From an uncultured Roseburia sp. (GTDB lineage Bacteria; Bacillota; Clostridia; Lachnospirales; Lachnospiraceae), in contig CAMXSH010000020.1 in the NCBI GenBank assembly GCA_947246475.1, forward strand, positions 1 through 37,965: DNA of 37,965 bases, read 5' to 3'. Positions within the stretch are counted from its first letter, which is position 1. The number at the start of each line of letters is the position of its first letter. The notes beneath the pieces are model-generated. The model ran no database searches and was not told where the DNA came from. It saw only the letters and a program-made list of their open reading frames with translations. The translations under genes and the position numbers were made by a program. Of the stretch, positions 21,086-30,125 are shown piece after piece.

Positions 21086-21260
21086 CTTAGTGGTGTGGTT
21101 TGGCAAATTGCTTTAGCAGTGTTTGCTGTCAGACTGGTTTGATGGCGCCATTGAGCTAATTGAATATTTTTCCTCAATATGCCCATAATAAAAGATAGCA
21201 GTTGGGGGCAGACTGACTTTTGCTCCTGACATCATATTTATGAAAGGACGGCATTTTTTT

Positions 21261-21695
21261 ATGTGGGGTATTGTGATTGGACTGATCTCTGGTGCATTGA
21301 TGAGTGTACAGGGAGTGTTTAATTCAGAGGTGACAAAACAAAGCAGTATCTGGCTGGCAGCAGCTTTCGTTCAGATTTCTGCTTTTGTTGTTTGCGTGGC
21401 TGCCTGGCTGGTGACAGGAAAGGATGGATCCATCAGCAGTCTGTGGGGGGTACAGCCTAAATATATGCTTCTTGGCGGTGCTATTGGTGCTTTTATTACG
21501 TACACGGTCATCCAGGCGATGAACCAGTGTGGTCCGGCGAGAGCGGTGGTATTTATTGTAACAGCACAGATCGTTGTGGCATACATCATTGAGCTGATGG
21601 GATTATTTGGCGTAGAAAAGCAGCCCTTTGAGTGGAGAAAGGTGATCGGGCTGGCAGCGATCATAGCGGGGATCATTACCTTTAAGTGGAAATAG
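21261..21695 (+). CDS. DMT-superfamily transporter, YdcZ/DUF606 type
   Basis: A small membrane protein of 144 residues with five TM helices: MWGIVIGLISGALMSVQGVFN (opening typical of the family), IWLAAAFVQISAFVVCVAAWLV, MLLGGAIGAFITYTVIQAM, ARAVVFIVTAQIVVAYIIEL and VIGLAAIIAGIITF. This is the half-size EamA-like DUF606 form, which usually acts as a pair or dimer; only one copy is here. ATG 21261 gives the expected N-terminus and AAAGGA lies 12 nt upstream; ATG 21240 has no site. It is immediately followed by the 146-bp structured repeats. Confidence 0.85.
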   Translation: MWGIVIGLISGALMSVQGVFNSEVTKQSSIWLAAAFVQISAFVVCVAAWLVTGKDGSISSLWGVQPKYMLLGGAIGAFITYTVIQAMNQCGPARAVVFIVTAQIVVAYIIELMGLFGVEKQPFEWRKVIGLAAIIAGIITFKWK

Positions 21696-21703
21696 GCACT
21701 CCC

Positions 21704-21849
21704 GCTGCCTGCTCGTGCCGGAGGCCCTCGCAGTCAGCTCCCCGAATTCGTATTGCGGGCTGTCGCTCTCCATACTCATTCGGTTAGCCCATCCAATGTC
21801 TATAACCCGTTCCGTGCAAGCACGGACGGCTTATAGCCGCTGGATGGAC
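21704..21849. repeat. 146-bp structured intergenic repeat, copy A
   Basis: First of two tandem copies, 9 bp after the transporter stop. It is rich in GC compared with its surroundings and built of several stem-loops. Stem 1 is 21704-21738 (GCTG.CTGC with GCAG.CAGC). Stem 2 is 21741-21759 (CCCG with CGGG). The terminal long hairpin is 21789-21847: CCATCCA/TGGATGG, CTATAA/TTATAG and TCCGTGC/GCACGGA stacked coaxially. There is no convincing open reading frame and no transposase. It differs from copy B at 4 of 146 positions by eye. It could be a REP/MITE-like element or a structured RNA unit. Confidence 0.85.
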
Positions 21850-21874
21850 CCGGACCCTGGTTTCATTAAATAAA

Positions 21875-22020
21875 GCTGCCTGCTCGTGCCGGAGGCCCTC
21901 GCAGTCAGCTTCCCGAATTCGTATTGCGAGCTGCCGCTCTCCATACTCATTCGGTTAGCCCATCCAATGTCTATAACCCGTTCCGTGCAAGCACGGACGG
22001 CTTATAGTCGCTGGATGGAC
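21875..22020. repeat. 146-bp structured intergenic repeat, copy B
   Basis: Second tandem copy, offset 171 bp from copy A with a 25-bp unique spacer. It ends 27 bp before the -35 of the comEA promoter. The long terminal hairpin arms are unchanged apart from one unpaired base (CCGC to TCGC). One difference turns GGGC/GCTC (with a G-T pair) into GAGC/GCTC, so pairing is kept; another weakens stem 2. The mix of retained and weakened pairing does not by itself prove selection. Confidence 0.85.
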
Positions 22021-22046
22021 TTTATATGAAAAATGTTATTTTGTGG

Positions 22047-22075
22047 TTGTCAAAAATATATTTCATTGATACAAT
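22047..22075 (+). promoter_or_regulatory. Promoter of the comEA cluster
   Basis: TTGTCA (22047-22052), a 17-bp spacer and extended -10 TGA-TACAAT (hexamer 22070-22075), 55 bp before the comEA start. Strong consensus match; no competence-specific ComK box was recognised. Confidence 0.75.
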
Positions 22076-22129
22076 TAGAGTATGCACTCTGGTCTTTATC
22101 CCATGCGGGCAAATTGGGAGAGAAAGACA

Positions 22130-22738
22130 ATGAAAGAAAATCAGATCAAATATATAATAGTGGCTGCAGCGGTTGTTCTCTTTGGTGTCTTATGGATTTT
22201 AACAGGGCAGAAGAAGGATCAAGGCAGCAGAGAAGAAACAGATATCTTTCGCAGTGAGACGGATTTTGTAGAAGAGGAAAAAACAGATCTGCCGGAGGGA
22301 AAGATATATGTGCATATAACCGGGGCAGTGAAAAATCCGGGCGTCTACATTTTTGAGAAAAAGCCCAGGGTGATCGAGGTGGTGGAAAAAGCAGGGGGAT
22401 TTAAGAAAAATGCTTCCACATCGGGGATCAATCAGGCAGAAATTGTGGAGGACGGTACCCAGATCGTGATTAGGAACAGGGGAGATACAAAGGCTTCTGG
22501 AGAGAATCCTCTGGAGCAGGAACAGCCGGAGCAGGAGATATCCAGTCTGGTGGATATAAATACTGCCGGAAAGGAACAGCTTATGACCCTTTCCGGAATT
22601 GGGGAATCTAAAGCGATGGCGATTATTGCTTACCGGGAAGAGCATGGGAAATTTAAAAAGATTGAAGATATTATGAATATAACAGGGATTAAAAATGGTG
22701 TATTTGATAAGATTAAAAGTCAGATCAAAGTATCGTAA
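22130..22738 (+). CDS. comEA: ComEA-type DNA-binding protein
   Basis: A membrane-anchored dsDNA receptor for natural transformation, 202 residues. TM anchor at about 7-25 (YIIVAAAVVLFGVLWIL), acidic linker, SLBB domain at about 57-121 (GKIYVHITGAVKNPGVYIFE...VVEKAGGF), a second linker and tandem helix-hairpin-helix at about 140-202 (VDINTAGKEQLMTLSGIGESKAMAIIAYREEHG, then IEDIMNITGIKNGVFDKIKSQI). ATG 22130 follows GGGAGAG by 8 nt; an earlier ATG at 22082 sits at the transcription start. comEC is not adjacent: a two-component pair and a GerMN lipoprotein lie between. Confidence 0.93.
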   Translation: MKENQIKYIIVAAAVVLFGVLWILTGQKKDQGSREETDIFRSETDFVEEEKTDLPEGKIYVHITGAVKNPGVYIFEKKPRVIEVVEKAGGFKKNASTSGINQAEIVEDGTQIVIRNRGDTKASGENPLEQEQPEQEISSLVDINTAGKEQLMTLSGIGESKAMAIIAYREEHGKFKKIEDIMNITGIKNGVFDKIKSQIKVS

Positions 22739-30039: not shown

Positions 30040-30125
30040 GGAGACGTATCGAAGTGGTCATAACGAGAACGACTCGAAATCGTTTTGCCTTCACGGGCAC
30101 GTGGGTTCGAATCCCACCGTCTCCG
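30040..30125 (+). tRNA. tRNA-Ser (anticodon CGA)
   Basis: An 86-nt class II tRNA. Acceptor GGAGACG pairs with CGTCTCC, the anticodon stem ACGAC/ATCGT carries loop CTCGAAA (anticodon CGA, reads UCG), the long variable arm pairs around GCC/GGC, and the T arm is GTGGG-TTCGAAT-CCCAC. The discriminator base is G; CCA is not encoded. Confidence 0.95.

What the first reader, a model, noticed from the sequence alone, without database searches (positions are those of the whole stretch)
21704..22020. Tandem 146-bp multi-hairpin element of unknown class
Two copies, 142 of 146 positions identical by eye, 25 bp apart, sit between a transporter gene and the comEA promoter. Each has a short 5' stem pair and a long 3' hairpin with three stacked helices (CCATCCA/TGGATGG, CTATAA/TTATAG, TCCGTGC/GCACGGA). 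GC content is visibly above the flanks. One copy difference swaps a G-T for an A-T pair, keeping a short stem; another weakens a stem, so selection on structure is not proven. No transposase, reading frame, or match to a riboswitch or ncRNA I know. Could be a non-autonomous mobile element, a REP-like insertion, or a structured RNA array.
Basis: partly seen in the sequence, partly recalled or inferred. Interest (0 to 1): 0.75.

Follow-up and report, generated by a model that had tools for sequence, protein, structure and literature searches.

The report
Mobile hairpin repeat catalogued as RNA
The doubled hairpin sequence belongs to a repeat family that databases list as a small RNA of unknown function, but its relatives in many related bacteria look like small pieces of jumping DNA that settle between genes.

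Summary
In detail: two copies, 142 of 146 bases identical, 25 bp apart. Both are full-length matches, on the MINUS strand, to Rfam RF01699 "Clostridiales-1 RNA" (66.7 and 58.3 bits, cut-off 48), typed as an sRNA.

RF01699 does not behave like an RNA gene. This genome has 17 matches, 10 over the cut-off; three relatives have at least 111, 93 and 70. In 49 of 171 sampled clusters, none from this genome, both ends fit one inverted-repeat pattern; 36 of the 49 have perfect 7-8 bp flanking direct repeats (shuffled mean 1.6, max 8). One orthologous site holds a solo palindrome in one species and a full unit in another; unit number varies at others. Stems covary strongly but are almost only Watson-Crick: GU 69, AC 85 of 4513 cells, against GU 198, AC 1 of 990 in SRP RNA of relatives. 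That suggests DNA palindromes rather than an RNA fold.

Best reading: a modular MITE/BOX-like element. The window copies lack recognised ends and target duplications and look like an old relic. No transposase partner was found; transcription is untested.

The parts
21694..21858 (-). RF01699 unit 1, full model 1-166, 58.3 bits; its 3' end abuts the exporter stop codon
21868..22027 (-). RF01699 unit 2, full model 1-166, 66.7 bits
21704..21849 (-). 146-bp repeat copy 1
21875..22020 (-). 146-bp repeat copy 2
21787..21849 (-). hairpin H1 of copy 1 (three stacked helices, GCTTGC loop)
   Evidence: fold; Rfam structure line
21742..21783 (-). hairpin B of copy 1 (conserved ATGAG / CGAAT)
21704..21738 (-). 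hairpin C of copy 1
21958..22020 (-). hairpin H1 of copy 2
21913..21954 (-). hairpin B of copy 2
21875..21909 (-). hairpin C of copy 2
21240..21695 (+). upstream gene, YdcZ-type DMT exporter (context)
22047..22075 (+). promoter-like site (TTGTCA-17-TACAAT) before the ComEA-like gene, outside the array (context)
   Evidence: a consensus match only
22082..22738 (+). ComEA-like protein, SLBB + HHH_3 (context)

Best explanation
The pair is a two-unit remnant of a modular, non-autonomous DNA mobile repeat that Rfam lists as 'Clostridiales-1 RNA' (RF01699). SHOWN for relatives: copies with recognised ends are 183-203 bp in 45 of 49 cases (range 152-244), end in GATG...CATC inverted repeats and mostly have 7-8 bp AT-rich direct repeats outside; units occur as solo palindrome, single unit or tandem array, and unit number differs between species at the same site. 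INFERRED: a transposase acting in trans cuts at the inverted repeats; arrays grow and shrink by recombination or slippage between units; the hairpins are kept as palindromic DNA (cruciform or folded single strand) during propagation rather than as a transcript. The window copies share the three-hairpin core but have no recognised terminal repeat or target duplication, so they are read as an old, immobile insertion present at the same site in close species.
For: Rfam match. 17 matches in the own genome, 10 over the cut-off; at least 111/93/70 in G418/G386/G148 (150 of 169-177 candidates scored each). 111 of 392 genomes of the order, patchy. Direct repeats of 7-8 bp in 36 of 49 clusters with recognised ends, shuffled mean 1.6, max 8 in 2000: 27 of 31 in G418/G386/G148 and 9 of 18 in the own genus. 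Solo palindrome in G016, full unit in G024 at one site. At the comEA site units are found in 4 of 30 loci (G000, G016, G020, G024), 2/1/4/1 by Rfam, plus a piece at a contig edge in G001 (by eye). Another site has 2/3/3/1 units. GU 69 vs AC 85 of 4513 cells; subfamily consensus GU 3 vs AC 9 of 247; SRP control GU 198 vs AC 1 of 990. No single orientation to genes: 58/44/39/15 of 156.
Against: No partner found: Y1 transposase absent from G000 and G025; IS256 type absent from G000, G418, G148 and G057, and no matching ends in the 22 IS256 loci fetched; other transposase families were not tested. None of the 49 clusters with recognised ends is from the own genome; its 10 clusters, and all 7 of G057, fall among the 122 without, and the window pair shows no convincing flank repeat. 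So mobility of the window's own subtype is inferred. Covariation and conserved unpaired letters (ATGAG, CGAAT) are unusually strong for the interior of a MITE and mean that the core has some function. No expression data.
Confidence: 0.78

Rival explanations
1. It is a true small RNA, as Rfam lists it, encoded in tandem genes on the minus strand; the copies spread by duplication or transposition but work as RNA.
For: Rfam type 'Gene; sRNA'; Weinberg 2010 table: probably an RNA, probably not cis-regulatory, probably not a switch; very strong covariation; conserved unpaired letters.
Against: G-U and A-C cells about equally rare, unlike SRP RNA; in 21200-22200 no promoter-like site on the minus strand upstream of the pair and no terminator-like site on that strand (a simple consensus scan); between presumed orthologous units single-sided stem changes break the pair in 30 of 37 cases.
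Confidence: 0.14
2. Once inserted, the hairpins serve the host as transcription barriers or mRNA 3'-end stabilisers between genes (here between the exporter and comEA), whatever moved them. This can be true together with the best explanation.
For: Copies lie between genes in 147 of 159 clusters by my ORF caller, and in the co-oriented context the upstream gene ends at a median of 20 nt; predicted RNA fold of the window copies -71.0 and -75.5 kcal/mol on the minus strand, -62.7 and -64.7 on the plus strand.
Against: No single orientation to genes; no terminator-like site at the pair; stems differ between presumed orthologous units about as much as the rest.
Confidence: 0.2
3. A purely local tandem duplication with no wider significance.
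For: 97% identity and 25 bp spacing; a DNA search of the own genome with one copy finds only its twin and one 73% partial match.
Against: The structure model finds relatives across this genome and others; units occur at the same site in related species in different numbers.
Confidence: 0.03

Closest known systems
Rfam RF01699 Clostridiales-1 RNA (Weinberg et al. 2010, PMC2864571; seen: passages, the table row and its legend; supplements not seen)
   Same: Same sequence and structure model; both window copies pass its cut-off over the full length.
   Different: Listed as an sRNA gene; here it appears as a dispersed repeat with target duplications, variable tandem units and no excess of G-U pairs.
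BOX elements of Streptococcus pneumoniae (Croucher et al. 2011, PMC3049150; seen: passages)
   Same: Modular interspersed repeat whose middle module may be absent or present in several copies; palindromic and predicted to fold; thought mobile.
   Different: Sequence relation not tested. Here the covarying core spans an order and 7-8 bp direct repeats flank many copies; the passages I read give no target duplication for BOX.
MITEs such as Nezha (as described in PMC3049150 passages)
   Same: Short, terminal inverted repeats, strongly base-paired, target-site duplications, many copies.
   Different: Tandem arrays of the internal unit, order-wide covariation of internal hairpins; no parent insertion sequence found.
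REP sequences with TnpA-REP (Y1) transposases (PMC8266576; search listing with start of abstract)
   Same: High-copy palindromic repeats.
   Different: Target duplications are present, and Y1 transposases are missing from two genomes rich in copies.

Membership tests
Rfam RF01699 | score at or above the gathering cut-off of 48 bits over the model | tested here: met
   66.7 and 58.3 bits, model 1-166
Rfam RF01699 | is an RNA (transcribed, works as RNA) | not testable with these tools
   no expression data; indirect evidence against from G-U counts
Functional RNA fold | G-U tolerated more than A-C in conserved stems of the modelled strand | tested here: not met
   GU 69, AC 85 of 4513 cells; one control, SRP, 198 vs 1 of 990
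MITE (relatives with recognised ends) | terminal inverted repeats | tested here: met
   49 of 171 clusters by the pattern used
MITE (relatives with recognised ends) | target-site duplication | tested here: met
   36 of 49 perfect 7-8 bp
MITE (window copies themselves) | terminal inverted repeats and target-site duplication | tested here: not met
   window cluster is among the 122 without recognised ends; no convincing flank repeat
MITE | parent transposase with the same ends | tested here: inconclusive
   Y1 and IS256 types tested, neither fits; other families not tested
MITE | dispersed high copy number | tested here: met
   17 matches in the own genome, at least 111, 93, 70 in three others
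BOX-like modular repeat | module in variable number at orthologous sites | tested here: met
BOX element proper | sequence homology to boxA/boxB/boxC | not tested
   compared by architecture only
REP with TnpA-REP | Y1 transposase in the same genome | tested here: not met
   none found in G000 or G025, both draft genomes; 10 of 39 genus genomes have one

The most novel reading that the evidence does not exclude
RF01699 is a structured DNA, not an RNA: an order-wide mobile element whose three hairpins are kept by selection for strict Watson-Crick palindromy of the DNA itself (folded single strand or cruciform, read by an unidentified transposition or replication protein). Its covariation led it to be filed as RNA. 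The same wobble test may expose other catalogued 'RNAs'.
Probability: 0.45. Interest if true: 0.7.

Novelty: new variant of a known kind. Interest (0 to 1): 0.5.

Why it matters
If right, a curated RNA family is a transposable DNA element, and annotations of many genomes of this order call transposon copies sRNA genes. Counting G-U against A-C cells is a cheap check that may separate DNA palindromes from RNA folds when both show covariation. The arrays vary in unit number between close species and could serve as typing markers.

Tried and rejected
REP/IS200 partner: Y1 transposase (PF01797) in 10 of 39 genus genomes, none in G000 or G025 (17 and 20 RF01699 matches), four matches in G027, which has no RF01699 match; but G016, G024, G030, G012 and G005 have both. 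IS256 partner (PF00872): in 4 of 8 genomes, absent from G418 with 111 matches; none of the 22 loci fetched has the ends by my regular expression. Autonomous parent by paired ends: reading the pattern lists of five genomes (G000, G016, G025, G386, G418) I followed up one pair (811 bp, L199), which is two element copies with another ORF between; among held loci the one wide pair (1146 bp, L129) corresponds to the site where L083 has a 290-aa ORF without a Pfam match, so a parent there is not formally excluded, though the ORF lies beside the same conserved genes in G016 and G024. Plasmid and phage collections: no DNA match to the pair. tRNA as a second wobble control: only 10 tRNAs in held loci and my parsing of stems was faulty; discarded, so SRP is the only control. 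Promoter for the modelled strand: none by a simple scan. Ends and target duplications of the window subtype: none found. A gene-orientation rule: none. Boundary choice: a first definition gave 30 six-mers and 8 seven-mers in 52 clusters; I then moved the boundary by one base after looking, giving 36 of 49. With a projected Rfam structure instead of RNAalifold pairs, A1 gives GU 46, AC 68 of 1295. One search paired L074 with the wrong unit of L134. Integron attC likeness was considered and not tested. An early note says that solo palindromes outnumber full units; the counts do not show that and the claim is dropped.

Full report
OBSERVATION. The repeat is real: 21704-21849 and 21875-22020, 171 bases start to start, 142 of 146 identical. 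Both copies are GC-richer than the 300 bp on either side and are predicted to fold into a long hairpin plus two shorter ones. They lie between the stop codon of a YdcZ-type exporter and a promoter-like site of a ComEA-like gene.

IDENTITY. Rfam finds both copies on the minus strand as RF01699 Clostridiales-1 RNA, full length, above the cut-off. Weinberg et al. 2010 rate it probably an RNA, probably not cis-regulatory and probably not a switch (table row and legend seen; the supplements, where single motifs are discussed, were not seen). Three searches of the paper library by its name and three on mobile repeats or misfiled RNAs showed no study of its function or mobility; the library holds only open-licence papers.

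COPY NUMBER. The own genome has 17 matches at E up to 1e-3, 10 over the cut-off; the weakest are partial. Of 61 genomes searched as relatives, the own one included, 28 have a match and 20 one over the cut-off; of 392 genomes of the order, 111, in 55 of 173 genera; of 391 of the class, 16, three of them outside the order. Large searches use stricter filters, and searches scored at most 7 candidates per genome. Three genomes searched with up to 150 candidates scored have 111, 93 and 70 matches, which are lower bounds.

SAMPLE. I studied 192 units in 171 clusters, mostly the best-scoring ones listed, so weak and decayed copies are under-represented. Of the own-genome hits, L012, L016, L017, L019 and L020 (weak or partial) were left out.

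ENDS. Many copies start TGATRYYAGGGTCAAAAGG and continue past the Rfam model into a second palindromic piece that ends TTTTGACCCCAACATC or close to it; I call these type I and the rest, the window included, type II or unassigned. With GATG...CATC as the element, 49 of 171 clusters have both ends by my pattern, 45 of the 49 being 183-203 bp (range 152-244). 36 of the 49 are flanked by a perfect direct repeat, 28 of 7 bp and 8 of 8 bp; 2000 shuffles of the right flanks gave mean 1.6, max 8. By genome: G418 16 of 17, G386 7 of 8, G148 4 of 6, own genus 9 of 18, own genome 0 of 0. At least two of the 49 are the same site in two species (L120, L030), both without a duplication. Of the 28 seven-mers, position 1 is A in 26 and position 2 is T in 26. 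Among the other 122 clusters some in G418 and G386 show duplications by eye with variant ends (not counted).

SITES. In G016 a palindrome of about 40 bp follows a stop codon; in G024 the same site holds a full unit ahead of the same palindrome. Since direct repeats flank the unit, gain or loss by recombination fits that site as well as insertion does. At the comEA site a structure model finds units in 4 of 30 loci: G000, G016, G020, G024; Rfam counts 2, 1, 4 and 1 units there; G001 has a piece at a contig edge by eye; the other 25 loci have no match. Another site has 2, 3, 3 and 1 units in G000, G016, G024 and G020. One further site is filled in G024 and apparently empty in G001, in diverged flanks. 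By eye, units within an array resemble each other more than units elsewhere; for the window, one copy finds its twin at 97% and otherwise one 73% partial match in the genome.

STRUCTURE. In 111 distinct copies all 26 modelled pairs show changes on both sides; covariation 0.455 against 0.150 in shuffles, 0 of 500 reaching it (the alignment was fitted to the model, and the model was built from 44 of these and similar copies). The pairs are almost only Watson-Crick: WC 2464, GU 52, AC 62, other 140 in A3; WC 1714, GU 17, AC 23, other 41 in A4; A1 alone GU 22, AC 21 of 1126, or GU 46, AC 68 of 1295 with projected Rfam pairs. Subfamily consensus pairs in 11 clusters of three or more copies: WC 224, GU 3, AC 9, other 11; one representative for each of 73 clusters: GU 42, AC 34 of 1780. 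SRP RNA from 30 of the 39 relatives with a match, paired by RNAalifold in the same way: WC 784, GU 198, AC 1, other 7. A fold that works as RNA should tolerate G-U far more than A-C on its own strand. Here neither is clearly favoured. This rests on one control family and is an inference, not proof.

DECAY. In 16 pairwise comparisons of presumed orthologous units (not independent, and unit orthology within arrays is uncertain), stems differ at 87 of 780 positions and the rest at 186 of 1731; single-sided changes break the pair in 30 and keep it in 7 cases; double changes keep it in 20 and break it in 3; GU 8, AC 12. One comparison (L074/L134) used the wrong unit; without it the rates are 79 of 728 and 146 of 1622, and 16 double changes keep the pair. 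So single copies are not visibly under selection for pairing as RNA after insertion; the kept double changes, some of them in blocks at the comEA site, are unexplained and could be conversion between units.

CONTEXT. Of 159 clusters with enough flank, 12 overlap an ORF by more than 60 bp by my own crude ORF caller. Of 156 with two neighbours: co-oriented 58, divergent 44, antisense 39, convergent 15; 27 of the 58 co-oriented ones lie within 12 nt of the upstream gene.

MECHANISM. Shown: dispersal, inverted ends and target duplications in relatives, difference in unit number. Inferred: a transposase in trans; growth of arrays by recombination between units; palindromes kept as DNA. Not shown: the helper, current activity, absence of a transcript, mobility of the window's own subtype.

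VERDICT. The window pair is an ordinary, probably immobile member of a catalogued family; the family looks misfiled, which is the interesting part.

Noticed in passing
L054:2410-3152 (G057): Four matches to model R1 on one strand, two of them with the same score, like a young array.
   Followed up: no
L007, L037, L135: A variant with ends like TAAAACAGTGA...TTTTA and, in L037 and L135, further GCGGGAG-type hairpins downstream; fits neither main type.
   Followed up: no
L017:1-240 (own genome, contig C3): Tandem hairpin arrays (GGAACG...GCGGGAGTTCC) that match RF01699 only weakly; perhaps a related repeat family.
   Followed up: no
L204, L212, L213, L228, L229, L230, L231, L234: After the right-hand direct repeat a few bases of another left end (GATAC) follow, as if whole elements had been duplicated and then deleted.
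   Followed up: partly
L050-L056 (G057): The terminal stem differs from copy to copy within one genome yet stays paired, for example TATAAGC/GCTTATA and GGAAAGC/GCTTTCC.
   Followed up: partly
G025 sites; L071 near 2102-2118: 54 end-pattern sites in G025 against 20 RF01699 matches (a full element gives up to two), so lone ends or solo palindromes exist besides full units.
   Followed up: partly
L083:3233-4105 - (G024): A 290-aa ORF without a Pfam match lies between two RF01699 copies.
   Followed up: partly
window 30040-30125 +: A tRNA gene of 86 bases by Rfam.
   Followed up: no
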